DNA of 64,000 nt, taken from the NCBI GenBank assembly GCA_030699385.1, contig JAUYMY010000054.1, forward strand, positions 1-64,000, written 5' to 3'. The translations under genes were made by a program, and so were the position numbers. The notes under the pieces were generated by a model, which was not told the DNA's origin, did no database searches, and saw only the letters and a list, made by a program, of their open reading frames with translations. Origin of the DNA: Methylobacter sp. Its GTDB lineage: Bacteria; Pseudomonadota; Gammaproteobacteria; Methylococcales; Methylomonadaceae. The stretch's first letter is position 1. Each line of letters opens with the position of its first letter. Positions 6,999 through 29,919 of the stretch are shown piece by piece.

Positions 6999-7550
6999 AT
7001 GAATTGGCTTAATACTCAAAATCGTTACGGCACCTTGTCGATAGCGCTGCACTGGCTCATGCTGCTGCTGTTTATAGCGGTTTATGCCTGTATCGAATTG
7101 CGCGAATTTTTTCCCAAAGGCAGCGAGCCCCGCGAGGCGATGAAAACCTGGCATTTTATGCTGGGCTTGTCGGTGTTTACACTGGTTTGGCTGCGTCTGC
7201 TGCTGCGCTTGCTGAGTTTCACGCCGCGCATTGAGCCGGAACCGCCTAAATGGCAGCATGTATCGGCTAAACTGATGCATGGCGCGCTCTATGTATTGAT
7301 GATTTTCATGCCGCTGCTGGGCTGGCTGATGTTGAGCGCCAAAGGCAAACTGATACCTTTTTTCGGTCTGCAACTGCCGGCATTGATTGGCGAAAGTAAA
7401 GCTGCGGCAGAACTGATTAAAGAAGTGCATGAGATCGGCGGTACTGCGGGTTATATTCTGATCGGCCTACACGCCGCCGCCGCGTTATTTCACCATTATG
7501 TCGCCAAAGACAATACGCTCTCGCGCATGTTGCCAAAGCGCAATTCATGA
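6999..7550 (+). CDS. Cytochrome b561 family protein
   Basis: A 183-residue four-helix membrane cytochrome. It begins WLNTQNRYGTLSIALHWLM with the first haem-ligand His, continues with WHFMLGLSVFTLVWLRLLLR, then HGALYVLMIFMPLLGWLMLSAKG, and ends with HEIGGTAGYILIGLHAAAALFHHYV. The paired His residues in helices 1/2 and 3/4 are those expected to hold two b haems. Such proteins shuttle electrons between quinol and periplasmic acceptors, and some act on superoxide. It starts 3 bp after feoC, so it may be part of the iron operon, where it could help keep iron ferrous; that link is inferred. Confidence 0.9.
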   Translation: MNWLNTQNRYGTLSIALHWLMLLLFIAVYACIELREFFPKGSEPREAMKTWHFMLGLSVFTLVWLRLLLRLLSFTPRIEPEPPKWQHVSAKLMHGALYVLMIFMPLLGWLMLSAKGKLIPFFGLQLPALIGESKAAAELIKEVHEIGGTAGYILIGLHAAAALFHHYVAKDNTLSRMLPKRNS

Positions 7551-7560
7551 GTACGTTGTG

Positions 7561-7622
7561 GTAGGAGCGGCCACCCGGCCGCGACAATCGCGTACCGTTC
7601 GCGGCCCGGTGGCCGCTCCTAC
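7561..7622. repeat. Family D hairpin repeat, copy 1
   Basis: A 62-bp long stem: the arm GTAGGAGCGGCCACC plus CGGCCGCGA is mirrored by TCGCGGCC plus GGTGGCCGCTCCTAC. A second copy lies at 29680-29742. Here it sits just after the cytochrome b561 gene and could stop transcription, although no U-run follows. Confidence 0.75.
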
Positions 7623-7688
7623 ACGAACCCGTGCCACGCTAAAAAATAAGCCGGTATAATAGCCGAATTTCCCCCATTTTTGAGTGTT

Positions 7689-8735
7689 ATGAGTAAACAA
7701 AGAAAAGCTGTGGCGTTAATTTCCGGCGGCCTCGATTCCATGCTGGCCGCGAAAACCATTATGGAACAAGGCGTCCATGTCGAGGGCATCAACTTTTTCA
7801 CCGGTTTTTGCGTCGAAGGCCACACCCACGCCATCCGCGCTCAAGACAAGGCCAAACCTAAACGCAATAATTCCTTATGGGTTGCCGAGCAATTAGGTAT
7901 AAAACTGCACATCGTCGATGTCATCGAAGAATATAAAAAGGTGCTGATCAATCCCAAACACGGCTACGGCGCCAATATGAATCCTTGTTTGGACTGCAAG
8001 ATTTTCATGGTCAATAAGGCCAAACAATGGCTAGTGGAAAACGATTTTGACTTCATCATCACCGGCGAAGTGATAGGCCAGCGCCCAATGTCGCAACGCA
8101 AAGCCACCATGCCCATTATCTCCCAGCAATCCGGCGCCGATGATTTATTACTGCGGCCATTGTGCGCGAAAAATTTACCGGAAACCTTGCCGGAACGCGA
8201 AGGCTGGGTCGACCGGGAAAAGCTGCATGAGATTACCGGACGCTCGCGCAAGCCTCAGATGGCGCTGGCTAAACAATTCGGCTTTGATGATTATGCCCAG
8301 CCTGCGGGCGGTTGTTGTTTCCTGACCGATGCCAGCTATTCAGCCAAACTGGTCGATTTATGGAAAGCGCGTGACGGCGATAAAGAATACGATTTGGACG
8401 ATGTGATGCTGCTCAAAGTCGGTCGGCACATCAGGCCGGAGCAACATTTTAAACTGATCGTCGCCCGTGAAGAAGGCGAAGAGCGTTTTATGCAAGGCTA
8501 CAAAAAAGATTTTATCACCTTGAAATGTATCGATTATCCGGGCGCGCTAACACTGGTCGACGGCACGCCTTCTGCCGAGGATTTGTTTACCGCCGCCAGA
8601 ATTACCGCCCGTTATGGTCAAGGCCGCAATGCCGAGCAAGTCGATGTGAGAATAATCGGCAAAGACGGCTCCGAACGTATTATTCAGGTCAAGCCGTTTG
8701 CGGCTGACGAAATCCCACAGGCGTGGCTGATATGA
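7689..8735 (+). CDS. PP-loop ATPase, tRNA-thiolation-like (MnmA/ThiI-related)
   Basis: A 348-residue cytosolic protein. The PP-loop SGGLDSMLA near the N-terminus binds ATP and activates a carbonyl by adenylation. A CLDCK motif (NPCLDCKIFM) and a GCC motif (PAGGCCFLTD) provide cysteines of the kind that relay sulfur in tRNA 2-thiouridine or 4-thiouridine synthesis. The C-terminal third is a separate domain. The next gene, overlapping by 4 bp, encodes a TusA-like sulfur carrier, so a role in RNA or small-molecule thiolation is likely; the exact substrate is not visible. ATG 7689 is preferred over an in-frame TTG at 7680. Automatic annotation often names this family tRNA (5-methylaminomethyl-2-thiouridylate)-methyltransferase, but it is not standard MnmA. 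Confidence 0.75.
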   Translation: MSKQRKAVALISGGLDSMLAAKTIMEQGVHVEGINFFTGFCVEGHTHAIRAQDKAKPKRNNSLWVAEQLGIKLHIVDVIEEYKKVLINPKHGYGANMNPCLDCKIFMVNKAKQWLVENDFDFIITGEVIGQRPMSQRKATMPIISQQSGADDLLLRPLCAKNLPETLPEREGWVDREKLHEITGRSRKPQMALAKQFGFDDYAQPAGGCCFLTDASYSAKLVDLWKARDGDKEYDLDDVMLLKVGRHIRPEQHFKLIVAREEGEERFMQGYKKDFITLKCIDYPGALTLVDGTPSAEDLFTAARITARYGQGRNAEQVDVRIIGKDGSERIIQVKPFAADEIPQAWLI

Positions 8736-8959
8736 CCAGAGAAACGCTGAATGCCCGCCGCCTGCTGTGTCCGCTGCCGGTTATCCGTACTCAGGACAAG
8801 GTCAAGCAACTTAAAGTCGGCGACCAGTTGGAAGTGATTTGTACCGATCCCGGCGTGATGCAGGATATTCCGGCCTGGTGCCGCATCAATGGGCATAAGG
8901 TGTTGGAAACCGTTTCCGGCGATCATGAATACATTATTATTCTGGAAGTGGGCGGCTAA
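8732..8959 (+). CDS. TusA/SirA-family sulfur carrier
   Basis: A 75-residue protein with the TusA signature near its N-terminus, ARRLLCPLPVIRTQDKVKQL (CPxP with the persulfide-carrying Cys), and the following GDQLEVICTDPGVMQDIPAWC strand-helix unit. The ATG at 8732 overlaps the previous stop (ATGA) and is preferred over the GTG at 8723. In the operon it probably receives sulfur from a desulfurase and passes it to the PP-loop enzyme; this is inferred from order and family. Confidence 0.88.
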   Translation: MTRETLNARRLLCPLPVIRTQDKVKQLKVGDQLEVICTDPGVMQDIPAWCRINGHKVLETVSGDHEYIIILEVGG

Positions 8960-10104
8960 TGGCTGAACTGGTCGATGCCGCAACACTGGACAAATTAAAA
9001 GCCCGAGCCAGTTATGTCGGCGCGGCGATTAATGTTATCCAAACGCTGCTCAAAATCGGCTTTGGCATTTTGGGTCAATCGGCCGCGCTGATTGCCGACG
9101 GCATTCATTCGTTGTCGGATTTGCTCAGCGATTTGCTGGTGATTATCGCGGTCAAACTAGGCAGCCGCGAGGCCGATCACGAACATCCTTACGGCCATCG
9201 CCGCTTTGAAACCATTGCTACCGTTATTCTGGGCTTTAGCTTAATCGCGGTCGGGGGTGCTATCGCCTGGTCGGTCATGGAACGCATGGCGAAGCCGGAG
9301 CATTTGCCGGTGCCCAATGTGTTATCTCTGGCTGTTGCCGCGCTGTCCATTTTGATTAATGAGTGGCTGTATCATTACACCAAACGCATCGCCAAAAAGA
9401 CCCGTTCCAAATTATTGCTGGCCAATGCGTGGCATCAGCGCAGTGATGCGATTTCGTCGTTGGTGGTGCTATTCGGCATCGGCGCGGTGCTGTTGGGCTA
9501 TCCGTTAGCCGATGGCATTGCCGCTATCGTGGTCGCGTTGATGGTAGCTAAAATCGGTTTGAATTTGGTGTTTGAAAGCATTAAAGAATTGGTCGACACC
9601 TCCCTGCCGCCCGAATTGGTCGCCGAAATCAGGGCGGCGATTAACGCCATTGACGGCGTTGAAGGCATACATTTATTGCGCACCCGGCACATGGGCGAAG
9701 ATGCGCTGATTGATGCGCATATCGTCGTCGATCCGCGCATTACCGTGTCCGAAGGTCACATGATCGGCGACATTGTGCGTGATGATTTGATTAAGCGTTT
9801 TGATGATGTGATGGATGTGCTGGTGCATGTCGATCCCGAAGATGACGAAAGTTTGCAGGAGCAATCGAGGCCGTTGTCGCGCGGCGAAGTGCAACGCTTG
9901 TTGGAGCGCTATTTGGCCGACTTTAAACTGGCCATCGACGATTTTAGAATCCATTATCTGGACGGCCAGATTGAAGTGGAAGTGATTTTGCCTTTTGCGG
10001 TGAGCGAGTCGCCGGAACAGTTCGCGGCGATAAAAAAACAATGCCGGCAGATGACGGTTGAAATAAAAAAAATCGATAATGTGTTTTTGTTTTTTAAGGT
10101 TTGA
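8959..10104 (+). CDS. Cation diffusion facilitator (CDF) metal exporter
   Basis: A 381-residue inner-membrane transporter of the CDF family. The transport-site motif HSLSDLLSD follows ALIADGI in helix II, HEHPYGHRRFET forms the loop after it, and WHQRSDAISS supplies the HxxxD of helix V. A cytosolic dimerisation domain begins around residue 210, and the extra C-terminal ~90 residues are longer than in FieF. It likely exports Zn(II), Fe(II) or Mn(II) against protons. It overlaps the tusA-like gene by one base (TAATG), so the three genes probably form one operon. The link between metal export and sulfur transfer is unexplained. Confidence 0.9.
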   Translation: MAELVDAATLDKLKARASYVGAAINVIQTLLKIGFGILGQSAALIADGIHSLSDLLSDLLVIIAVKLGSREADHEHPYGHRRFETIATVILGFSLIAVGGAIAWSVMERMAKPEHLPVPNVLSLAVAALSILINEWLYHYTKRIAKKTRSKLLLANAWHQRSDAISSLVVLFGIGAVLLGYPLADGIAAIVVALMVAKIGLNLVFESIKELVDTSLPPELVAEIRAAINAIDGVEGIHLLRTRHMGEDALIDAHIVVDPRITVSEGHMIGDIVRDDLIKRFDDVMDVLVHVDPEDDESLQEQSRPLSRGEVQRLLERYLADFKLAIDDFRIHYLDGQIEVEVILPFAVSESPEQFAAIKKQCRQMTVEIKKIDNVFLFFKV

Positions 10105-10109
10105 AAAGA

Positions 10110-10240
10110 GAAATAGAACTCGGATGGCACGGGTCAGACTGATTTACACGGATTTTTTAAAATAGACCGCGCTTTTAATCCGTGGTTATCCGTTTTACTT
10201 GTGCCCCAGAGGGTATCAGTGCCATCCGTGTTCGATCATT
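10110..10240. repeat. Family A repeat, core copy 1
   Basis: A palindromic ~130-bp segment running from AACTCGGATGGCAC to GTGCCATCCGTGTT, with the internal element TTTACACGGATTTTTTAAAA. It is the reverse complement of most of the copy at 14125-14350 (shared GCCCCAGAGGGTATCAG). The TIR ends seen in other copies are missing here. It fills the gap between the CDF gene and argJ. Confidence 0.7.
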
Positions 10241-10260
10241 TAACTAATGAGGCTTAATTT

Positions 10261-11475
10261 ATGGCAGTAGGGCAATGCAGTTTTCCAACCATGCATCCGG
10301 TCGCAGGCATTACGCTGGGTACCGCCAATGCAGGCATCAAGCAAACCGTCAGGGATGATATTCTGGTGATGCAAATGGCTGAGCATTCGACTTGTGCGGC
10401 GGTGTTTACCCAAAACGCCTTTTGCGCAGCGCCGGTGCATGTCGCTAAAGCTAATCTGGCGCATAGCCCGCGCTGGTTATTGATTAATTCCGGCAATGCC
10501 AACGCCGGTACCGGCGAGCAAGGCATGAAAGATGCGTTGGCAACTTGCGCCGATGTGGCCGCCGTGGTCGAGGGCGCGGCAAACCAAGTGCTGCCTTTTT
10601 CTACCGGCGTCATCGGCCAGCCGCTGCCGGTGGGCAAAATCAAAGCTGCGTTGCGGGAAGCCGTCAGCAATCTGAATATTGATAACTGGGACAAGGCGGC
10701 TCAGGCGATCATGACCACCGATACTTTTGCCAAAGGCGTGTCCAAAGTCATCGACATTGACGGCCAAAGCATCACCATCAACGGCATTTCCAAAGGCGCG
10801 GGCATGATACAGCCGAATATGGCGACCATGCTGGGCTTTATCGCCACCGATGCGAAAATCGATCAAGCCCTGTTGCAAAACTGCCTGGCGCTGGCGGTCG
10901 AGCAATCGTTCAACCGCATCACTGTCGACGGCGACACCTCGACCAATGACGCCTGCGTAGTGATGGCGAGCGGCTGTTCGTTGGCTCCCGAAATCAAACC
11001 GGATAGCGAAAATTATCAAATTTTTGCCGCTGCGCTGATGAGCGTGTGCAAACAACTGGCGGAAGCCATTGTCAGGGACGGCGAAGGCGCAACCAAGCTG
11101 ATGCGCATTGTGGTCGAGCAGGCCTTGAGCGATGAAGAAGCGGTGCGCGTCGGCAAAACCATCGCCCATTCGCCGCTGGTGAAAACCGCTTTTTTCGCCA
11201 GCGACCCGAACTGGGGGCGGATATTGGCGGCAGTCGGCCGTGCCGGTGTCGAAAATATGGTGTTGGAAAATGTGCAGCTGTATCTGGACGATGTCTGCAT
11301 TGTCAGAAACGGCGGCCGGGCTGACGATTACACCGAGGAAGCCGGGCAGCGGGTGATGGATCAGCAAGAGATTACCGTGACCGTTAAACTCGGTCGCGGC
11401 GATGCGGTGCAGGAAGTGCTAACCTGCGATTTGTCTTATGAGTATGTAAAAATCAATGCGGAATATAGGACTTAG
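10261..11475 (+). CDS. argJ: Bifunctional glutamate N-acetyltransferase / amino-acid acetyltransferase
   Basis: A 404-residue Ntn-type ornithine acetyltransferase. It makes N-acetylglutamate and recycles the acetyl group from N-acetylornithine in arginine synthesis. The autocleavage site is visible in KGAGMIQPNMATMLGF, where the chain is cut before the Thr of ATML to give alpha and beta subunits. Other family marks are NSGNANAGTG, TVDGDTSTND and FFASDPNWGRILAA. A TGAGG precedes the start by 8 nt. Its 3' end overlaps the next gene by 20 bp. The length is typical. Confidence 0.96.
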   Translation: MAVGQCSFPTMHPVAGITLGTANAGIKQTVRDDILVMQMAEHSTCAAVFTQNAFCAAPVHVAKANLAHSPRWLLINSGNANAGTGEQGMKDALATCADVAAVVEGAANQVLPFSTGVIGQPLPVGKIKAALREAVSNLNIDNWDKAAQAIMTTDTFAKGVSKVIDIDGQSITINGISKGAGMIQPNMATMLGFIATDAKIDQALLQNCLALAVEQSFNRITVDGDTSTNDACVVMASGCSLAPEIKPDSENYQIFAAALMSVCKQLAEAIVRDGEGATKLMRIVVEQALSDEEAVRVGKTIAHSPLVKTAFFASDPNWGRILAAVGRAGVENMVLENVQLYLDDVCIVRNGGRADDYTEEAGQRVMDQQEITVTVKLGRGDAVQEVLTCDLSYEYVKINAEYRT

Positions 11476-12439
11476 GCGAAAGGCGAAAGGCACAAGGCGA
11501 AAGGTTTTTCCCTCGTTCCCACTTCAAGTCGCCGTAGGCGTGGTCAAAAACCCGGAAGGAAAAATCCTGATTTCCCTGCGCCATGCCGCTTTGCATCAAG
11601 GCGGTTTGTGGGAATTCCCCGGCGGCAAGATTGAAGCTTCGGAAACCGCAGAACTTGCGCTGGCCCGCGAACTCAAGGAAGAACTTAATATCACCGTAAG
11701 CGCCGCAACGCCGCTGATTACCGTTAGTCATCAATATCCCGACCTGTCCGTACAGTTAAAGGTTTTCCTAGTCGAGCAGTTTTCCGGCGAAGTGAAAAGC
11801 TTGGAAGGCCAGCCGTTTAAATGGGTCACACCGGCCGAACTGGGATATTACGCATTTCCCGCTGCCAACCAGCCCATTATTACCGCCGCCCGCCTGCCGC
11901 CGTATTACGCGATTCTGGATGATACGGATGAAAGCTTGTTATTGCCGAATCTGCAAAAACTATTGAACCGGGGCATTAAGCTGATTCAGGCGCGCTTGAA
12001 AAACCTGTCGCCCGCTGCGGTGGCAACGTTCATCGAACAGGCTTATCCGTTGTGCCAACAGCAGCAGGCGCTGTTGTTAATGAATTCTGCTGTTGATTAT
12101 CTGGCGCAGGTAGACGGCATCCATTTGACCAGCCAACACTTGATGGCGTTAAGCAAGCGTCCCGAAAACAGCCAATGGCTTGCGGCATCCTGCCATAACC
12201 TTGAACAGCTGCAACAGGCGCAAAACATAGGCGTGGATTTTGCTGTGCTGGCGCCGGTGCTGGCCACCCAAACCCATCCGGGCGCTGAAACACTGGGCTG
12301 GGAGATATTTTCTAATTTAATTGCCCAAGTGAATTTGCCGGTTTATGCACTGGGCGGCATGAGCGAATCTTGTTTAGCTACGGCGCGACAAAGCGGTGGG
12401 CAGGGTATAGCGGCAATCCGCGCTTTTCTTGTTGACTAA
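11456..12439 (+). CDS. MutT (Nudix) - thiamine-phosphate synthase-like fusion
   Basis: A 327-residue two-domain protein. Residues ~25-150 are a Nudix hydrolase of the MutT kind, with the complete box GGKIEASETAELALARELKE followed by EL. The remainder is a ThiE/TenI-like barrel (LIQARLKNLSP, HLTSQHL, ASCHNLEQLQQAQ, ALGGMS). This fusion is common in gammaproteobacteria and is taken to clean 8-oxo-dGTP; the role of the ThiE-like half is unclear. The first ~22 residues are basic, come from repetitive DNA (AGGCGAAAGG repeats) overlapping argJ, and are probably not conserved, so the true start may be further downstream. Confidence 0.88.
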   Translation: MRNIGLRRKAKGTRRKVFPSFPLQVAVGVVKNPEGKILISLRHAALHQGGLWEFPGGKIEASETAELALARELKEELNITVSAATPLITVSHQYPDLSVQLKVFLVEQFSGEVKSLEGQPFKWVTPAELGYYAFPAANQPIITAARLPPYYAILDDTDESLLLPNLQKLLNRGIKLIQARLKNLSPAAVATFIEQAYPLCQQQQALLLMNSAVDYLAQVDGIHLTSQHLMALSKRPENSQWLAASCHNLEQLQQAQNIGVDFAVLAPVLATQTHPGAETLGWEIFSNLIAQVNLPVYALGGMSESCLATARQSGGQGIAAIRAFLVD

Positions 12440-22835: not shown

Positions 22836-22863
22836 TGCGGGAGTTGTCCACGAAAAATATTTT

Positions 22864-22960
22864 GTAACTACTCAGGGACTGTTAAAAATGACCAAATAGA
22901 ACACGGATGACACAGATGGGACGGATTTACACAGATTTTTTAAAAATATATCGCGTCAAA
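22864..22960. repeat. Family A repeat, truncated copy in the integron 5' flank
   Basis: Begins with the TIR GTAACTACTCAGGG and continues AACACGGATGACACAGATGGG and ATTTACACAGATTTTTTAAAA. The other end is cut off where the 62-bp palindrome begins. A short family B fragment (GTTGTCCACGAAAAATA) precedes it. Together these replace the expected distal part of intI. Confidence 0.7.
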
Positions 22961-22966
22961 GACGGG

Positions 22967-23028
22967 GTCAGGTCTTGCATTGTGCATTTCTTTAAAACAA
23001 TTTGATTGTGCAAAATTCAAGACCTGAC
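22967..23028. repeat. 62-bp palindromic element next to the intI remnant
   Basis: Perfect 11-bp arms GTCAGGTCTTG / CAAGACCTGAC with further near-complementary bases inside (CATTGTGCA, TTTTGCACA). The size and structure resemble REP-type units mobilised by RAYT transposases, but no transposase is in view. It lies directly beyond the intI reading frame. Confidence 0.6.
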
Positions 23029-23031
23029 ACT

Positions 23032-23199
23032 TTATTTGTTCTTTATTTGTTTCTTGCCAAAATGCAGAATAAAGCGTTTAATCCAGTCCGTGTAAGCCTG
23101 CTCAGTTCGGATACTATAATGCTTCAAGCGGATTTTGCCCCTGACTTGATCGAGCAACTTAGGCTCTTGCTTAGGTAAGTTTTCTGATGGGTATTGCAT
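23032..23199 (-). pseudogene. intI: Integron integrase N-terminal remnant
   Basis: A 55-codon frame: M at 23199, then LLDQVRGKIRLKHYSIRTEQ, AYTDWIKRFILHFGKK and a stop at 23032. This is the SAM-like N-terminal core-binding domain of IntI tyrosine recombinases, in which the pattern RIRxxHYSxRTExAYxxWxxxFIxFH is characteristic. Integrases are ~320-340 residues; the catalytic R-H-R-Y domain is missing, and the frame ends in non-homologous residues (QIKNK) beside a palindromic repeat. Position and orientation, divergent from the cassettes with ~120 bp to the first core site, are exactly those of intI. Recombination activity must be lost. Confidence 0.78.
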
Positions 23200-23327
23200 T
23201 TGATTTAGGATATGCTAAATCTCTCTAGGTTAATGAATTTGAAACATTTTTACATTTTTATAAATCATTTAGACAACCGTTTGACGCAATGTTTTGCGTC
23301 TATTAGGCTGTCTAATATTAGTTAGGG
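23200..23327. other. Probable attI site and intI/cassette promoter region
   Basis: An AT-rich 128-bp stretch between the intI remnant and the first cassette, ending in the core site GTTAGGG (23321-23327). The bases before it (GTCTAATATTAGTTAGGG) form an inverted pair of core-like boxes, as expected for the simple site of attI. A short palindrome GACGCAATGTTTTGCGTC lies at 23283-23300. A cassette promoter would be expected here, but none stands out. Confidence 0.55.
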
Positions 23328-23335
23328 TTAATTTG

Positions 23336-23848
23336 ATGTTGAAGTATGTTTTATTTTTCACGCTAATACTTCCAACTGTGGCAATTGCAAATGGTTCTCT
23401 TTGTAAACAAAATGAAGTGGATTTGTTTTTCTGCCAATCCGCTAAAAAAACGGTCTCACTATGTGCTTCAAAAAACTTATCCAAAACTGATGGTTACCTT
23501 CAATATAGGTTTGGAAGTAAAAGAAAAATCGAATTAAATTACCCGGAACAGCTAGAACACCCTTCAAATTTTTTCACTTATGGTTCGGGGTTTTATTCAG
23601 GCGGTGGATCGAATTCGTATCTTCGTTTTAATATAAATAAATTTATTTATACAATATATACGGCAGATGGGTCTGTCTCTAAGACAAGAGGTCCAGATAA
23701 TTCATTTCACTGGGAAGAATCGGGGATAGTGGTAGAAAAAAACGATAAGATAATTTCTAATTTTATATGTCGTCGTTTCACTGGTTGGGCTGATAAGCTT
23801 GATGAAATTTTACCGATTGATAATTCAGGTCTACGGTTACCAGAATGA
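23336..23848 (+). CDS. Cassette 1: exported protein of unknown function
   Basis: A 170-residue protein with a signal peptide (MLKYVLFFTLILPTVAIANG). The mature part has several Cys (SLCKQNE, LFFCQSA, SLCASK, NFICRR) that could form disulfides, and a Tyr/Gly/Ser-rich middle (GSGFYSGGGSNSYLRF). The family is not recognised; short exported unknowns are common in cassettes. ATG 23336, 9 bp after the attI core, fits better than the in-frame ATG at 23294, which lies within attI. The stop at 23848 abuts attC1. Confidence 0.65.
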   Translation: MLKYVLFFTLILPTVAIANGSLCKQNEVDLFFCQSAKKTVSLCASKNLSKTDGYLQYRFGSKRKIELNYPEQLEHPSNFFTYGSGFYSGGGSNSYLRFNINKFIYTIYTADGSVSKTRGPDNSFHWEESGIVVEKNDKIISNFICRRFTGWADKLDEILPIDNSGLRLPE

Positions 23849-23937
23849 CCCTAACATGGCGCTCAACCGGAGCGCGGTTATAATGCGGTTTTGTTTTTCA
23901 GCTTTCCGGGCCGCGCCCGGTTAGCTCTACGTTAGGC
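23849..23937 (+). other. attC1
   Basis: 89 bp from CCCTAAC (R-double-prime) to GTTAGGC (R-prime). The left arm GCTCAACCGGAGCGCGG pairs with the right arm CCGCGCCCGGTTAGC. The centre reads TTATAATGCGGTTTTG. Almost identical in the arms to attC7 and attC8. Confidence 0.88.
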
Positions 23938-23947
23938 GTATTATCAT

Positions 23948-25027
23948 ATGACCACCAATCTCCAAGACATCTTTGCAAGCCTCTATCGCTTTACCGCAAT
24001 GTACGATAAAGATCAGCAAGCAATGACAAACTGGTGGTACACCAATGCTGCAATGGACATTGCCCGTGTGTTCAAAAACCTAGAAGGAAATAAAATCATT
24101 GTTAATTGCAAAAATCTTAAAAATTGGGAGTACGCGGCTGACAAACTTCTATTAATCGCAGATGCCGTTGCCATCCGTGATATTAGACCTTTCGAGACTA
24201 AAATTGGTTTTATAATTCATCCCAATTGGAAACCATACGATAGATCATCACTTGATAATCTACCATTGCCACCCATCGGTCGCCTTCTCACAATGGAACC
24301 AGGTTATTTGAATGGCGATTTAGTAGATATTCCATTGGTTGGAAAGACTCCATCTAGCATGTCTGTCTATGAAGGATTTCCAGACGATGCTTACGAATGG
24401 ATACATGGCGCAGGCAAACGTTACCATAAGACAGGCTCTATTTTTTACGCACCATTCATACCTGCGTTAGAAGTAGAGCTTGAGTTCATGAAAAACCGTG
24501 TCTCAGTTGCCAATCTTCTTGGCGGTGAATCGCTCTATACCGAATCAATAGATTTTGTTGACGAGAATTCACTTATGGCTCTCGCGTCTCTCAAGCTCCC
24601 TACGCTTGAGAATGTATCACTGGAAACTCTGAATAAAATCAAATATGATCATATTGAAGACTTTACATCGTTTTCTCGTTCAATTTTGAAAGCCACTACT
24701 GCCATTAAATCAGCCGCTGGAGCAGAGTTATTTGCCAAGGAAGTGAGGGCAATTCAGAGAGACTTAATTGATGATAATCTTGACAAGCTAGATAAAAAGT
24801 ATCGTCAAATATCTAAAATGCGGACACTCAGCTCAAGCGGTGTGTTTGTCGGGGTGGTTGGATTATCGTTTGCTGCAATTGAAGGAGCAGCTTTACCTGC
24901 AATTACAACAGGTCTTGCTAGTGCAATTACCGCAGGCATCGCTTATGCGGCTGCACAAATTAAGGAAAAGTACACGCAAGAAGAAAACCCGATGCACTTT
25001 TTATGGCGTTTACATCGTAGCTCATAA
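23948..25027 (+). CDS. Cassette 2: 359-residue protein with C-terminal hydrophobic segment
   Basis: A soluble-looking N-terminal ~280 residues, including TNWWYTNAAMDIARVF, DDAYEWIHGAGKRYHKTG and an Asp/Lys-rich helix before residue 290, followed by a hydrophobic Gly/Ala-rich stretch (SGVFVGVVGLSFAAIEGAAL, then ITTGLASAITAGIAYAAAQ) that could insert into a membrane as one or two helices. I do not recognise the family. The layout (sensor or catalytic part plus terminal membrane segment) recalls abortive-infection effectors, but that is speculation. The gene starts 11 bp after the core site and ends 38 bp before attC2. Confidence 0.7.
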   Translation: MTTNLQDIFASLYRFTAMYDKDQQAMTNWWYTNAAMDIARVFKNLEGNKIIVNCKNLKNWEYAADKLLLIADAVAIRDIRPFETKIGFIIHPNWKPYDRSSLDNLPLPPIGRLLTMEPGYLNGDLVDIPLVGKTPSSMSVYEGFPDDAYEWIHGAGKRYHKTGSIFYAPFIPALEVELEFMKNRVSVANLLGGESLYTESIDFVDENSLMALASLKLPTLENVSLETLNKIKYDHIEDFTSFSRSILKATTAIKSAAGAELFAKEVRAIQRDLIDDNLDKLDKKYRQISKMRTLSSSGVFVGVVGLSFAAIEGAALPAITTGLASAITAGIAYAAAQIKEKYTQEENPMHFLWRLHRSS

Positions 25028-25064
25028 TAAAATCAAAACAAATGGGGGAAACAACCGTTTTCTG

Positions 25065-25157
25065 GCCTAACACAACGCTCAACTGGAGCGCGGCCATTTG
25101 GCACTTTGTGTATTTTCAAGCTTTCTCAGGCCGCGCCCGGTTAGCTTTACGTTAGGC
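25065..25157 (+). other. attC2
   Basis: 93 bp from GCCTAAC to GTTAGGC. The arms CGCTCAACTGGAGCGCGGCC and GGCCGCGCCCGGTTAGC pair. A diverged member of the attC1/7/8 family. Confidence 0.87.
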
Positions 25158-25183
25158 ATCTACAGGCAAATATAGAGAACAAA

Positions 25184-25759
25184 GTGGCTGAATTTATAAA
25201 TTTACTAAAATCAGTCCCCTCTGTGGTTTGGACTGGTATCGTAGGGGCTCTTATTGGCTCTTCATTGACAATAATTGGTGTTGTACTTACGAATCGATCG
25301 AATACTGAGCGTCTGAAAACTCAACTTCAGCATGAGCAAAATGTTCGGAGACAAGAGCTAAAAAGAGAAAGAGCTGAAGAGCTGTATGTTGAATCAAAAA
25401 AATACCTAAATGCCGTCGGAATTCATTACCTGCCATATAAAAAGGTAATGAAGGGCGAATTAACATTCAATCAAGCGCTGGACTTAACTATCGATAATGG
25501 CTCAAAAAGAGATTTTGAACCTCATAGAGTTACGATGATTATCGATATGTATTTTCCTAATTTACAGATGCCATTTAATGAAATCATGGCAAAAAGAGAT
25601 TTCCTTAACCGTATCGTCACGGGCTATAAGGAGCAATATAAAACAGGCGACACCAATGGCACAAAGTGGCTAGATCCATTTCAAGCCACGCTTGAAGAGC
25701 TTAGCCAGGCAATAACAACCTTTGAAAAACTGGTCGCATCTTTGGAAATTGAAAAATGA
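25184..25759 (+). CDS. Cassette 3: membrane-anchored coiled-coil protein
   Basis: A 191-residue protein with one N-terminal membrane helix (VVWTGIVGALIGSSLTIIGV) followed by a charged, probably coiled-coil stretch (RSNTERLKTQLQHEQNVRRQ) and a cytosolic helical domain. The family is unknown; such single-pass helical proteins are frequent in cassettes and in mobile defence regions. It uses a GTG start with GAGA 5-9 nt upstream. Confidence 0.7.
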   Translation: MAEFINLLKSVPSVVWTGIVGALIGSSLTIIGVVLTNRSNTERLKTQLQHEQNVRRQELKRERAEELYVESKKYLNAVGIHYLPYKKVMKGELTFNQALDLTIDNGSKRDFEPHRVTMIIDMYFPNLQMPFNEIMAKRDFLNRIVTGYKEQYKTGDTNGTKWLDPFQATLEELSQAITTFEKLVASLEIEK

Positions 25760-25778
25760 ATCTCAGTCGCTACTTTCC

Positions 25779-25900
25779 GCCTAACATAGCGCTCAAAGGG
25801 ACGTGCCGCCTCAGGGCGGTTTTAAAGTTTTGTAATTTATCAAGCTTTGGGGCTTCGTTTAGCGTCCGTGAGCGGCACGCCCCTTAGCTTTATGTTAGGG
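25779..25900 (+). other. attC3
   Basis: 122 bp from GCCTAAC to GTTAGGG. The arms CGCTCAAAGGGACGTGCCGC and GCGGCACGCCCCTTAGC pair. The long central part (TTTTAAAGTTTTG, CAAGCTTTGGGGCTTCG) resembles attC5 and attC6. Confidence 0.87.
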
Positions 25901-25942
25901 TGCAATTTCCCACACCACTTCACATTTATTGAGACTATCTAC

Positions 25943-26350
25943 ATGGAAGAATTCGAACACGTTGCAAAAGGCCTTCAACAAGACAAAAAAGTTGTATTTA
26001 CGGCTCAATCTTGCAAGAACTTTCACCAACGAATGCTTATATGCAAACACGCTTTTGAACAGGGAGCTGTCCCAATAAACCCTTTCAATTTGTTTGGCTA
26101 TTTTCTCTACGAACTTGTCGACAGAGACTTGGTTAGAAGCGGGAATAACAATCTTCTGAGACGGTGTGACGAGCTATGGGTATATGGAGAAATTAGCGAT
26201 GGCGTCCTCGCTGAAATTCAGATGTTCAAGGACTCCAGGAAACCCGTGAGATTCTTCGATATTTCTAATCTCCCAGCGGAGGTAAAGGAAATTTCCAAGA
26301 ACGACCTCATCTTTGAAGACAACGTCAAACAGCACAAGGGGGCTATTTAA
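25943..26350 (+). CDS. Cassette 4: nucleoside 2-deoxyribosyltransferase-like (DUF4406-type) protein
   Basis: A 135-residue protein. CKHAFEQGAVPINPFNLFGY, then NNNLLRRCDELWVYGEISDG and VLAEIQMFKDSRKPVRFFD follow the layout of small Rossmann-like nucleoside deoxyribosyltransferase relatives: a helix with a conserved His, PINPF, CDELWVYG and a Glu in the EI/QMF helix. In that superfamily the Glu attacks or binds the sugar. Related domains act on nucleotides, NAD-like molecules or ADP-ribose. Start 25943 is chosen because the longer frame runs back into attC3. The function in the cassette is unknown. Confidence 0.6.
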   Translation: MEEFEHVAKGLQQDKKVVFTAQSCKNFHQRMLICKHAFEQGAVPINPFNLFGYFLYELVDRDLVRSGNNNLLRRCDELWVYGEISDGVLAEIQMFKDSRKPVRFFDISNLPAEVKEISKNDLIFEDNVKQHKGAI

Positions 26351-26378
26351 CAAGTGGCAAGCATGTACCCACGCACCC

Positions 26379-26448
26379 TCCTAACCCGGCAGTCAACAGG
26401 GACGCTGCGCGATAAAGCCGCGCAGCGCCCGTTACTTCTACGTTAGGT
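26379..26448 (+). other. attC4
   Basis: A short, 70-bp site from TCCTAAC to GTTAGGT. The arms AACAGGGACGCTGCGCG and CGCGCAGCGCCCGTTAC pair with a minimal loop. Unlike the two other attC families of the array, so it is likely of separate origin. Confidence 0.8.
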
Positions 26449-26505
26449 AGTTCGGGAAAAGCTGGCGCCCCGACCTAATGCGCCGCACATTGAGGGGAAA
26501 ATACA

Positions 26506-27009
26506 ATGAGAATAACTTTACCAATTCTGTTTCTACTCACGGCTTCAATGTCGAATTCTTATGCTGGGCCGGTGGAAGACTTGAGCGCGGTATTAAACAA
26601 CCGTCTTGGTACATCTTCCGAGGACAGACGTGTTGACGATACAACAAACGTCCTTGGCGCAATTGTGAAAACAGGGTGTCATGGCGACGTGTTGGATGCA
26701 AATGTGCGGATAACTGGCGTTTCTGGAAAACTCGAAGGAGACACCGCAATTATGACTGTCACTTATAGTGGTGGTTATACGCGACAAGGGTGGGCATTCC
26801 CATGCCAAAAGGTATCTTCAAACTTAGGCGGCTTAGAAGAGAAAAAGGTATCAGGATCATATGAGTTCCGTGTCACAGGGAAAGCCTTTCAGAAGCCAAC
26901 GATAACGTGGGGAGCAGGACGTAACTTTGGGGAGGTTACTGATCCGAACCATGATTCAAATAAAATGGCGATTCGCGCAGTGGAGAATGCAATCGCTTCC
27001 GCATTCTAA
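26506..27009 (+). CDS. Cassette 5: exported protein of unknown function
   Basis: A 167-residue protein with a signal peptide (MRITLPILFLLTASMSNSYA) and a beta-rich mature part (VRITGVSGKLEGDTAIMTVT, YEFRVTGKAFQKPTITWGAG). It has two Cys (KTGCHGDV and AFPCQKV) that may form a disulfide. A strong ribosome-binding site (GAGGGGAAA) is carried in the cassette. The family is not recognised; probably periplasmic. Confidence 0.68.
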   Translation: MRITLPILFLLTASMSNSYAGPVEDLSAVLNNRLGTSSEDRRVDDTTNVLGAIVKTGCHGDVLDANVRITGVSGKLEGDTAIMTVTYSGGYTRQGWAFPCQKVSSNLGGLEEKKVSGSYEFRVTGKAFQKPTITWGAGRNFGEVTDPNHDSNKMAIRAVENAIASAF

Positions 27010-27016
27010 CAAAACT

Positions 27017-27139
27017 GCCTAACAAGTCAGTCAAAGGGACGCGCCGCCCGTTGGTGGTTTTGAAGTTTGGTTTTTCATCAAGATTCGGTGGCTTCGTTTC
27101 GCTTTCGTCAGCGGCGCGCCCCTTACCGTAACGTTAGGC
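27017..27139 (+). other. attC5
   Basis: 123 bp from GCCTAAC to GTTAGGC. The arms AGTCAAAGGGACGCGCCGC and GCGGCGCGCCCCTTACC pair. Nearly the same as attC6. Confidence 0.87.
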
Positions 27140-27167
27140 AAAGAAGTATAAATATTGGAGAAGCTAT

Positions 27168-27479
27168 ATGTATGTTGAAGCAAACGGGAAAGCAAAATTC
27201 AAAGTAGACGAGACGGGCGAAATCATTACTGTTGATGCAACTGATCTCGGTTGGGAATGCGAAGGTACTGGCGAAGAGCGTGGAATGGGATCGGAATTGG
27301 TTCATTCCGCCGAATATTCTATTGAGAGCAAATCTGGCGAGATTTTCGACGTGACATGGAGTGTTTGGGAATACCCTGTTGGGGTAGAGAATACAAGTGA
27401 AACCAGCGTTCCACATGGGATTTCCTTATTGGAAGACCTACAGTATGGCTTGTCACATGAGCCGGAGCAGGACGACTGA
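27168..27479 (+). CDS. Cassette 6: small acidic protein of unknown function
   Basis: A 103-residue cytosolic protein, acidic, mostly beta in its first half (KAKFKVDETGEIITVDATDL, EYSIESKSGEIFDVTWSVWE) with an acidic tail (HEPEQDD). GGAG precedes the ATG by 6 nt. I do not recognise the family. It ends 6 bp before attC6. Confidence 0.62.
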   Translation: MYVEANGKAKFKVDETGEIITVDATDLGWECEGTGEERGMGSELVHSAEYSIESKSGEIFDVTWSVWEYPVGVENTSETSVPHGISLLEDLQYGLSHEPEQDD

Positions 27480-27485
27480 TATAGA

Positions 27486-27607
27486 GCCTAACAAGTCGGT
27501 CAAAGGGACGCGCCGACCGTTGGCGGTTTTCGAGTTTGATTTTTATCAAGGTTCAGCGGCTTCGTTTAAGCTCACAGAGCGGCGCGCCCCTTACCGTAAC
27601 GTTAGAC
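27486..27607 (+). other. attC6
   Basis: 122 bp from GCCTAAC to GTTAGAC. The arms CGGTCAAAGGGACGCGCCG and CGGCGCGCCCCTTACCG pair; the middle TTTTCGAGTTTGATTTTTATC matches attC5 closely. Confidence 0.87.
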
Positions 27608-27636
27608 GTCTTTCACCCACACGGCATCACACGACC

Positions 27637-28395
27637 ATGAACATTTGCGACGCACACCTTGCTCTCGACCTAGAAGTACGACGATTCATGGAGAACGTCG
27701 GCAACGTTAAGGAGGAATCTATTACGGACTTCCTCGTTTGGAGGTGGCGCGAGTTAGACAAGCGTTTCAATTACCTACGAGTCCATCCCTTTAATCATGA
27801 AGAGGAAAGCTCAAAAACCGGCGCAGATTTCGACATGGAGCTTTGGTTAGTGGGTCGTCGGCATCACTTTGCACTCGCTGTGCAGGCCAAGAAATTCATC
27901 AAACCCACCAACGCGTATGTGGCGCAGCTGCGATACCCTGGCGGTTCAAAGGCACAAATGACTACGCTCCTTTCCTACGCATCATCGACGAATCGGCGTC
28001 CCTTCTACTTTATCTACTCACTTCCAGACTCCAAATCAAATACCATGTGTGGGGGTAGATCAAATACTCTTGGTGCGGTGTTTACAGCTGACGCACGCCG
28101 CCTCGAAGAATACGCTGACGGCAAGCACGGAAAGCGAATCACGAGAGATCAGTTGCTTGCGACTACCAATCCATTTCACTGCATGTTTTGTTGCCCGCTC
28201 TCTCAACACGGCGACTACTTCGACTCTTACTTTGGCTACCCTAGCGGAAGGCGTTCGGAAAATGGCAATGAACCATTACCCGGTTACGTCAAGCAATTGC
28301 TAGAACGGAGCGATAACGTCATCAACGTCGAGGAATCTGAGGCACCACGCCAGTTTCGTCTCGTTGGTGTTTACGATATGCGAAACGATGCCTAA
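27637..28395 (+). CDS. Cassette 7: DUF6615-like, PD-(D/E)XK-type protein
   Basis: A 252-residue protein. A helical start (ITDFLVWRWRELDKRF) precedes KTGADFDMELWLVG and, after a short turn, FALAVQAKKF. The series D, E-x-W, Q-A-K resembles the active site of restriction-like PD-(D/E)XK nucleases, as in the DUF6615 family. A cluster of Cys (HCMFCCPLS) could bind metal. A defence or nucleic-acid processing role is plausible but unproven. The ATG at 27637 is the first after attC6. The stop codon TAA lies within the R-double-prime box of attC7. Confidence 0.62.
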   Translation: MNICDAHLALDLEVRRFMENVGNVKEESITDFLVWRWRELDKRFNYLRVHPFNHEEESSKTGADFDMELWLVGRRHHFALAVQAKKFIKPTNAYVAQLRYPGGSKAQMTTLLSYASSTNRRPFYFIYSLPDSKSNTMCGGRSNTLGAVFTADARRLEEYADGKHGKRITRDQLLATTNPFHCMFCCPLSQHGDYFDSYFGYPSGRRSENGNEPLPGYVKQLLERSDNVINVEESEAPRQFRLVGVYDMRNDA

Positions 28396-28478
28396 CATGG
28401 CGCTCAACCGGAGCGCGGTTATAATGCGGTTTTGTTTTTCAGCTTTCCGTGCCGCGCCCGGTTAGCTCTACGTTAGGT
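28390..28478 (+). other. attC7
   Basis: 89 bp from GCCTAAC to GTTAGGT. Identical to attC1 over most of its length (CGCTCAACCGGAGCGCGG, TTATAATGCGGTTTTG, GCCGCGCCCGGTTAGC). Confidence 0.88.
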
Positions 28479-28485
28479 TCCCACA

Positions 28486-28593
28486 ATGAAATCCAAAAAT
28501 AACATGCAGGCTTATAAGATATTACCACCAGGAGAAACGCCACTGTGGCGTTTTATGAGTATATCTAAACGCTGTAAGGTGGATTCGCCGTAG
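28486..28593 (+). pseudogene. Cassette 8: truncated 35-codon frame
   Basis: A short frame starting MKSKNNMQAYKILPPGETPL, 8 bp after the attC7 core. It ends in a dispersed GC-rich repeat (GGTGGATTCGCCGTAGGC, later GCGGTTTGCTGCGCGAAACC) covering about 28580-28675. The insertion seems to have removed the rest of the gene and the left half of its attC. The original product cannot be recognised. Confidence 0.45.
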
Positions 28594-28677
28594 GCAATCC
28601 ACCACAACTTCGGTAGGATGTCATCGGCGTGGTACGTGTGTGGCGGTTTGCTGCGCGAAACCGCCCTACGGAGCTAC

Positions 28678-28747
28678 GGAGCGCGGTTATAATGCGGTTT
28701 TGTTTTTTTAGCTTTCCGGGCCGCGCCCGGTTAATTCCACGTTATGC
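28678..28747 (+). other. attC8, right-hand part only
   Basis: GGAGCGCGGTTATAATGCGG through GCCGCGCCCGGTTAATTCC to GTTATGC matches attC1 and attC7, but R-double-prime and L-double-prime are missing, replaced by the dispersed repeat. This attC should no longer fold properly. Confidence 0.75.
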
Positions 28748-29541
28748 ATAAACACATGAGTAAGTTCTTCATCGCTTCTTTAGCTTTTTTAGCCTTTCTA
28801 CTGTCGGTGCCAGCAGTCGCTGAAGACCAGGCACTTGCCAAGCTCTTTGCCCAACAAGGTATTGACGGGACTATAGTGATTTCGTCGCTACACAACGGAA
28901 AGACATTCATCCACAACGATCCCCGCGCTAAACAGAGATTCTCGCCAGCCTCCACGTTCAAGATACTGAATACGCTGATCGCGCTCGAAGAAAAAACCAT
29001 CTCTGGAAAAGACGATGTGCTGAAATGGGACGGGCATATTTACGATTTGCCAGATTGGAATCGTGACCAGACGCTGGAAAGTGCGTTCAAGGTTTCCTGT
29101 GTCTGGTGTTTTCAGGAGCTTGCACGCCGGGTCGGCGCGGAGAAGTATCGAAATTATTTACGTAAGTCAGCTTACGGAGAATTACGCGAGCCTTTTGAGG
29201 AAACAACATTCTGGCTTGATGGTTCGCTTCAAATCAGCGCAATTGAACAAGTGAATTTCCTCAAGAAAGTTCATCTGCGCACTCTCTCATTCAGTGCATC
29301 GTCCTACGAAACGCTACGACAAATCATGCTTATCGAGCAAACGCCGACTTATACGCTGTGGGCCAAGACAGGCTGGGCAACAAGAGTAAAGCCGCAAGTA
29401 GGCTGGTATGTGGGCCATGTCGAAACGCCAAAGGATGTATGGTTCTTTGCCACGAATATTGAAGTCCGTGACGAAAAAGACTTGCCATTACGCCAGAAAC
29501 TGACGCGAGAAGCATTACAAGTAAAAGGGATCATCGAATAA
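28744..29541 (+). CDS. bla: Cassette 9: class D (OXA-type) beta-lactamase
   Basis: A 265-residue periplasmic enzyme with a signal peptide ending near AVAED. Class D motifs: PASTFK at 68-73 (Ser70 nucleophile, Lys73 normally carboxylated), SCV at 118-120, YGE at 144-146 where most OXA enzymes have YGN, Trp157 in TTFWLDG, and KTG at 208-210. It should hydrolyse penicillins; the wider spectrum cannot be read from sequence. The first ATG lies inside the core site GTTATGC; an alternative ATG at 28756 gives a cleaner signal peptide. There is no ribosome-binding site at either, so expression depends on the context. The stop is followed directly by the cassette's own GCATAAC box. Confidence 0.93.
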   Translation: MHKHMSKFFIASLAFLAFLLSVPAVAEDQALAKLFAQQGIDGTIVISSLHNGKTFIHNDPRAKQRFSPASTFKILNTLIALEEKTISGKDDVLKWDGHIYDLPDWNRDQTLESAFKVSCVWCFQELARRVGAEKYRNYLRKSAYGELREPFEETTFWLDGSLQISAIEQVNFLKKVHLRTLSFSASSYETLRQIMLIEQTPTYTLWAKTGWATRVKPQVGWYVGHVETPKDVWFFATNIEVRDEKDLPLRQKLTREALQVKGIIE

Positions 29542-29542
29542 T

Positions 29543-29672
29543 GCATAACGAATAAGGTTAGATTGTGTGAGCGCAGAAATACGGGGTCAAAATACGCTAT
29601 TTTCGGGAAATAACATACCTTGATGACTATCCCTTGATCCCTCGTTCCCACGCGGCGCGCTCATCGTTATAC
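29543..29672 (+). other. Possible attC9, end of the array
   Basis: GCATAAC at 29543 is exactly complementary to the core GTTATGC that opens the cassette, so the left boundary is well supported. The right end is less sure: GTTATAC at 29666-29672, preceded by GGCGCGCTCAT that can pair with TGTGAGCGC. That same segment also resembles a common dispersed repeat (inverse copy at 29811-29834). Confidence 0.4.
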
Positions 29673-29679
29673 ATAAGTT

Positions 29680-29742
29680 GTGGGAGCGGCCACCCGGCCG
29701 CGAATAGTGCGCGATTGTTCGCGGCCGGGTGGCCGCTCCCAC
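29680..29742. repeat. Family D hairpin repeat, copy 2
   Basis: A 63-bp palindrome with arms GTGGGAGCGGCCACC plus CGGCCGCGA and their complement. Nearly identical to 7561-7622. It lies just past the last cassette. Confidence 0.75.
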
Positions 29743-29833
29743 AAATTTCATCTATTTTCACGCGTTCCTAAACGCCTAAAATTGCAAACCGGAATACTTG
29801 TGTATAAACATGAGCGCGGCGCGTGGGAACGAG

Positions 29834-29919
29834 ACAAAAACACGAAAGCCACGAACTTTTCGTGTTTTTTCGTGCCAAGCGTGGACAATTTTTGGTATGT
29901 CTTTTTCAGGAAATAGCCT
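29834..29919. repeat. Family B repeat, partial copy
   Basis: ACAAAAACACGAAAGCCACG followed by CGTGTTTTTTCGTGCC and the terminal TTTTTCAGGAAATAGCCT. It matches the right half of 12511-12611. With the family D copy it accounts for most of the 29673-30100 gap. Confidence 0.7.

What the first reader, a model, noticed from the sequence alone, without database searches (positions are those of the whole stretch)
22864..29672. A cassette array left behind by a dead integron
Nine attC-bounded cassettes follow a fragment of intI in the classical divergent position. The array cannot be rearranged by its own integrase, so it is a fossil unless another integrase acts in trans. Chromosomal integrons with this content outside Vibrio and Pseudomonas-type hosts are less well described, and this one carries a beta-lactamase.
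Basis: partly seen in the sequence, partly recalled or inferred. Interest (0 to 1): 0.85.

Follow-up and report, generated by a model that had tools for sequence, protein, structure and literature searches.

The report
Dead methanotroph integron holding OXA-198-like gene
A relative of methane-eating bacteria keeps the wreck of a gene-collecting system whose cutting enzyme and last recombination sites are broken, and the last gene in it is a close cousin of a hospital antibiotic-resistance gene whose source is not established.

Summary
The array is real, with corrections. Seven complete attC sites (not nine) lie between 23849 and 28477; an eighth lost its left arm to a dispersed repeat and a ninth keeps only its left part. 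An intI relic (first 50 codons) lies divergently beside an attI; a same-genus relative with an intact intI matches both and stops matching at the core site. No intact intI was found in the held assembly (87.8% complete); a different intI relic lies on another contig. This is a decayed chromosomal integron in the family of Methylomonas. Genus genomes often carry intI (12 of 23 over the family cut-off) and intI pseudogenes are well known, so the death is ordinary.

The notable part is the last cassette: an intact-looking beta-lactamase gene of the OXA-198 carbapenemase family, 94.6% identical in DNA to the hospital cassette across exactly the cassette borders. Both attC sites flanking it are broken, so it is locked in place. 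A 92% relative sits beside another beheaded integron of the same family. Methanotroph integrons are a plausible, unproven reservoir of OXA-198; the searches I made showed no report of the link.

The parts
22861..23047 (.). dispersed repeats that stand where the rest of intI is missing, including a ~71-bp element at 22967-23037
   Evidence: copies on other contigs and in relatives
23050..23199 (-). intI relic: first 50 codons, then cut
   Evidence: TIGR02249 positions 1-40, 33 bits, under cut-off; PF13495 over cut-off; 84.6% DNA identity over 23048-23327 with the intact intI start of same-genus G006
23200..23327 (+). attI region, core site GTTAGGG at 23321-23327
   Evidence: homology with G006 upstream of intI stops at 23327
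23336..23848 (+). cassette 1 gene, 170 aa, unknown function
   Evidence: ORF; no family hit above cut-off
23849..23936 (+). attC1, complete
23948..25027 (+). cassette 2 gene, 359 aa, unknown function
   Evidence: ORF; no family hit above cut-off
25065..25156 (+). attC2, complete
25184..25759 (+). cassette 3 gene, 191 aa, unknown function
   Evidence: 25151-25812 has 90% DNA identity in G160 and G036, other genera; dN/dS 0.16 over 188 codons against G160; against G036 only 54 codons lie in one frame (0.36), so that copy may be broken
25779..25899 (+). attC3, complete
25943..26350 (+). cassette 4 gene, DUF7768
   Evidence: PF24963, 43.1 bits, cut-off 26
26379..26447 (+). attC4, complete, short
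26506..27009 (+). cassette 5 gene, 167 aa, unknown function
   Evidence: ORF; no family hit
27017..27138 (+). attC5, complete
   Evidence: (E 0.11)
27168..27479 (+). cassette 6 gene, 103 aa, unknown function
   Evidence: ORF; no family hit
27486..27606 (+). attC6, complete
   Evidence: (E 0.15)
27637..28395 (+). cassette 7 gene, DUF6615
   Evidence: PF20320, 40.8 bits, cut-off 23.8
28390..28477 (+). attC7, complete
28486..28567 (+). cassette 8, start of a truncated gene
   Evidence: open frame running into the repeat, read by eye
28568..28671 (+). ~105-bp dispersed palindromic repeat that cuts cassette 8 and attC8
   Evidence: 12 strong matches (E 1.5e-25 or lower) among 15 in the genome; flanks
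28674..28747 (+). attC8, left arm lost
   Evidence: model positions 20-71 of 88 only
28756..29541 (+). cassette 9: OXA-198-family class D beta-lactamase, 261 aa
   Evidence: NF040806, 561.4 bits, cut-off 515; 94.6% DNA identity to the clinical cassette over 28740-29549; dN/dS 0.34
29543..29573 (+). attC9, left part only
   Evidence: shares 22 bases with sites after the M. lenta gene (L034) and in the array of G022 (L155); 29543-29610 does not fold
29641..29839 (.). dispersed repeats beyond the end of the array
   Evidence: tens of matches in the genome

Best explanation
A sedentary chromosomal integron, in a bacterium of the family of Methylomonas, that has lost function in place. It once worked in the usual way: IntI recombined folded single-stranded attC sites with attI (established knowledge of integrons). 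A deletion ending at dispersed repeats removed intI beyond codon 50 (the absence is shown; the deletion as event and the order of events are inferred). Further repeats stand in place of the left arm of attC8 and the right part of attC9 (shown). Cassettes 1-7 therefore keep complete sites and could move only if an integrase acted in trans; the last cassette, an OXA-198-family beta-lactamase, has broken sites on both sides and is fixed in the chromosome (inferred from the anatomy). The gene itself is an open, conserved frame and probably makes an active beta-lactamase (inferred).
For: Seven attC sites by two methods with a shuffle control, folding as single strands. intI relic and attI match a relative with an intact intI and stop at the core site. 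No IntI over the cut-off in the held assembly; two fragments look like IntI pieces. The left-flank SDR gene is present in 21 of 23 genus genomes. OXA-198 family call over the curated cut-off, identity to the clinical cassette bounded by the cassette ends, dN/dS 0.34. In the first 50 codons of the relic 12 of 15 codon differences from G006 are synonymous, so the loss looks recent relative to that divergence.
Against: The assembly is 87.8% complete in 84 contigs, so an intact intI could be missing. attC5 and attC6 score weakly with the independent model (E 0.11 and 0.15) and rest on the arm scan and folding. No expression or enzyme data. The relic on C69 shows that this genome held more than one intI, so one more is possible.
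Confidence: 0.9

Rival explanations
1. The integron is whole in the cell and the breaks are assembly errors at repeats.
For: The three breaks lie at repeats, most of them in many copies, and several contigs of this assembly end in such repeats.
Against: The breaks lie inside a 99-kb contig; no missing part of this intI type was found on another contig, the C69 piece being nearer to the other lineage (85% against 52%); in G042 a beta-lactamase of the same family sits beside another cut intI.
Confidence: 0.07
2. A cassette cluster that never had its own integrase (CALIN) lies beside an unrelated intI scrap.
For: attC sites occur on C79, C22 and C29 with no IntI-like match near them.
Against: Relic, attI and first cassette junction are collinear with G006 up to the core site.
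Confidence: 0.03
3. The array still works in trans, using an IntI encoded elsewhere or arriving from another cell.
For: Seven attC sites keep complete arms and fold; intact IntI genes exist in the genus.
Against: No intact IntI in the held assembly; the two sites flanking the beta-lactamase are broken.
Confidence: 0.1

Closest known systems
Sedentary chromosomal integrons with intI pseudogenes
   Same: attI, divergent intI, attC array, decayed integrase; nearly a third of intI genes in an early survey were pseudogenes (PMC2426708, abstract and passages)
   Different: here most of intI is gone and dispersed repeats also broke two attC sites around one cassette
CALIN (attC clusters lacking an integrase)
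   Same: behaves now as such a cluster; other attC sites without an IntI-like match near them exist in this genome
   Different: keeps an intI relic and an attI
OXA-198 cassette in class 1 integrons (P. aeruginosa pOXA-198, C. pasteurii pCfr-OXA-198)
   Same: 94.6% DNA identity over the cassette, same 5' leader and same first attC box
   Different: the clinical cassette has a complete attC of another type; here the site is truncated and the host belongs to the family of Methylomonas
G042 integron (other genus, same family)
   Same: 92% OXA-198-like gene at an attI (by eye) beside an intI cut near its start
   Different: other intI lineage, one cassette seen, attC after the gene (weak model hit, E 0.009)

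Membership tests
Integron (sedentary chromosomal) | intI gene of the IntI family | tested here: not met
   only a 50-codon relic at this locus; it is filed as a decayed integron, not a working one
Integron (sedentary chromosomal) | attI next to intI | tested here: met
   homology with G006 ends at the core site
Integron (sedentary chromosomal) | array of attC sites with R/L boxes and hairpin | tested here: met
   7 complete sites
Integron (sedentary chromosomal) | chromosomal location | tested here: met
   left-flank SDR gene in 21 of 23 genus genomes, own included; radical SAM gene beside it at 11 of 12 relative loci inspected
OXA-198 family class D beta-lactamase | NCBIfam NF040806 over cut-off | tested here: met
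   561.4 bits against 515
OXA-198 family class D beta-lactamase | STFK, S-x-V and KTG motifs | tested here: met
   STFK, SCV and KTG are in the translation; STFK and KTG named in PMC4790369 (passages), S-x-V recalled
OXA-198 family class D beta-lactamase | carbapenem hydrolysis | not testable with these tools
   needs an enzyme assay
CALIN | attC cluster with no integrase gene nearby | tested here: inconclusive
   no intact intI, but a relic and attI remain

The most novel reading that the evidence does not exclude
Chromosomal integrons of Methylococcales methanotrophs are the reservoir from which the hospital carbapenemase cassette OXA-198 was taken up by class 1 integrons; in this genome the cassette has since been locked in as its integron decayed.
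Probability: 0.3. Interest if true: 0.7.

Novelty: new member of a known kind. Interest (0 to 1): 0.5.

Why it matters
Where clinical resistance cassettes come from is an open question; a study that modelled attC sites of 11 taxa, Methylococcales among them, assigned 29 of 108 resistance cassettes to three other taxa (PMC8352920, abstract and passages; the word OXA does not occur in its main text). If methanotrophs carry OXA-198 cassettes in chromosomal integrons, that source becomes directly testable by sampling methanotrophs. The locus also shows a beta-lactamase cassette that lost its mobility through breaks on both sides.

Tried and rejected
Rfam at gathering score gave one hit in the window, a miRNA family at 29680-29744; it falls in a palindromic dispersed repeat and is taken as a chance match. 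A first alignment of mixed attC types aligned badly; a model from it was asked for with a structure string of wrong length and not pursued. Rest of this intI on other contigs: the C69 fragment proved nearer to a different, N-extended lineage. The same array at the same place in relatives: neither the intI start nor any of the 7 intact cassette genes nor the beta-lactamase of the window was found at 12 of 12 relative loci around the SDR gene (L129 is only 4.4 kb; other integrons were not sought there). The OXA protein trees do not resolve whether chromosomal or cassette forms came first, nor do methanotroph copies form one clade (two long rows and one partial row were left out of the second tree). 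The attC model as a mark of origin: in the two clinical loci it hits only the OXA-198 site (42.9 and 45.8 bits) and it misses the M. lenta locus; in an even draw of 369 genomes of the class, with stricter filters and few of the order, 13 had a match at E <= 1e-5, 11 of them outside the order, so it is not exclusive. A general rule that the 105-bp repeat targets attC: 3 of 12 strong copies in this genome lie in attC sites, but of 34 distinct copies inspected in relatives (one search counts 71 there) 2 have an attC arm nearby. Promoter and terminator scans of the array were no richer than shuffles.

Full report
What is there. The window is bases 1-64000 of a 99-kb contig of a 3.57-Mb, 84-contig assembly, 87.8% complete. 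The host shares a family with Methylomonas: the flanks of the beta-lactamase in family member G111 are the same as those in Methylomonas lenta R-45370. The family name Methylomonadaceae, and that the host oxidises methane, are recalled or inferred from kinship, not tested. A scan for attC core boxes joined by hairpin arms finds seven + strand sites, all between 23849 and 28477; 20 dinucleotide shuffles of the window gave 0-2 hits each on both strands together. A covariance model from three sites on other contigs, none from the window, finds the same seven (E 3e-30 to 0.15) and a partial eighth. All seven fold as bottom-strand hairpins, z -2.4 to -5.7.

The integrase. On the - strand 23050-23199 encodes the first 50 codons of an IntI. 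An intact 330-aa ortholog lies in same-genus genome G006; DNA identity is 84.6% over 23048-23327, and the match stops at the core site GTTAGGG (23321-23327), which marks attI and the start of cassette 1. Of 15 differing codons in the 50, 12 are synonymous. Beyond codon 50 only dispersed repeats were recognised up to the SDR gene. The whole-assembly search gave 11 matches to TIGR02249, none over the cut-off: this relic, a fragment on C69 (172.5 bits), and nine matches in frames of 295-356 aa that I take for Xer-type or phage recombinases (not tested further). All 14 control genomes also ring, none over the cut-off. The C69 relic belongs to another, N-extended intI lineage, lacks the middle of the gene, and has attC-like sites upstream, one found by the model. 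In the genus 12 of 23 genomes have an intI over the cut-off, 10 of them with a copy free of internal stops.

The cassettes. Seven genes with a complete site downstream; two match DUF families over their cut-offs (DUF7768, DUF6615), five none. The region of cassette 3 recurs at 90% DNA identity in G160 and G036, other genera of the family; 104 of 237 family genomes had a match to 23340-28390, the listed ones (capped list, at most two candidates scored per genome) nearly all on attC sites. The gene of cassette 8 and the left arm of attC8 are cut by a ~105-bp palindromic repeat with 12 strong copies in the genome.

The beta-lactamase. The last gene scores 561.4 bits with the OXA-198 family model, cut-off 515. 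Among plasmid records it is nearest to OXA-198 of P. aeruginosa pOXA-198 and C. pasteurii pCfr-OXA-198: 94.6% DNA identity over 28740-29549, from the preceding core box to the first box of its own site, and 91.6% protein identity over 261 aa (89.1%, which took an upstream start). dN/dS against the clinical gene is 0.34. After the first box the sites differ: the clinical cassette has a complete attC, while the window has 22 bases shared with sites after the M. lenta gene and in the array of G022, then unrelated sequence; that block occurs once in this genome. The M. lenta site does not fold well (z +0.34), so it may itself be decayed. A review says OXA-198 was found in P. aeruginosa and C. pasteurii, in class 1 integrons (PMC7855592, passages); an older one and a 2026 paper name P. 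aeruginosa (PMC4790369, PMC13321841, passages). Three original OXA-198 papers are not held.

Reservoir question. In the family 29 of 237 genomes have a match at E <= 1e-30; 14 including this one are at 53% identity or more, in 7 genera. In the order 18 of 311, own included, match at E <= 1e-85. The nearest, G042, has a 92% gene as the cassette next to an attI (by eye), with an attC after it, beside an intI of the other lineage cut after about 16 codons; no further IntI match was found in its 20-kb stretch. But close relatives also sit outside methanotrophs: a Pseudomonadota MAG (91%), a Tepidiphilus MAG with an attC (87%) and a Thiogranum MAG with an attC (70%). Of the 8 loci at 60% or more found in genome contigs by close peptide patterns, 3 are methanotrophs. 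The trees are unresolved. The attC model built from this genome hits the OXA-198 site in both clinical loci and no other cassette site there, yet is not exclusive to the order. Hence 0.3 for a methanotroph source.

Literature. Searches for 'class D beta-lactamase' with Methylomonas (0 papers), 'carbapenem-hydrolyzing class D' with 'Methylo' (3 papers, unrelated by their listing), OXA-198 (43 papers, 20 listed), OXA-198 with integron and environmental (16 papers, 15 listed), integron with methanotroph (39 papers, 15 listed) and Methylococcales with integron and attC (3 papers) showed no report of the link in what I saw (listings, and passages of the papers named). Integrons in Methylococcus are published (PMC8527097, passages).

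Verdict. A decayed chromosomal integron, ordinary in kind, with a beta-lactamase cassette of real interest that is locked in place by breaks on both sides. The breaks are shown by sequence; that they immobilise the cassette, that the gene is active, and that methanotrophs supplied the clinical cassette are inference.

Noticed in passing
L017 (G000:C69) 7098-11646: A second integron relic: N-extended intI lacking its middle, attC-like sites and several possible cassettes upstream, one pair of small frames looking like a toxin-antitoxin pair (by eye).
   Followed up: partly
L020 (G000:C79) 9960-12350; L018 (G000:C29) 9378-9852: Further attC sites and likely cassettes with no IntI-like match near them.
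   Followed up: partly
L019 (G000:C22) 80-1660: Two cassettes between two copies of the ~105-bp repeat in the same orientation, with a left attC half at one end and a right attC half at the other, as if a circle with the repeat inside its attC had entered by recombination between repeats (reading by eye).
   Followed up: partly
window 28568-28671: The ~105-bp palindromic repeat lies in attC sites in 3 of 12 strong copies in this genome, but near an attC arm in only 2 of 34 distinct copies inspected in relatives.
   Followed up: yes
L029 589-885: Group II intron domains just upstream of a 91% OXA-198-like gene in a Pseudomonadota MAG; such introns can target attC sites (recalled).
   Followed up: no
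window 29543-29573, L034 8777-8844, L155 13388-13450: OXA-198-like genes carry different kinds of attC in different hosts; window and clinical cassette agree in the first box and part right after it.
   Followed up: partly
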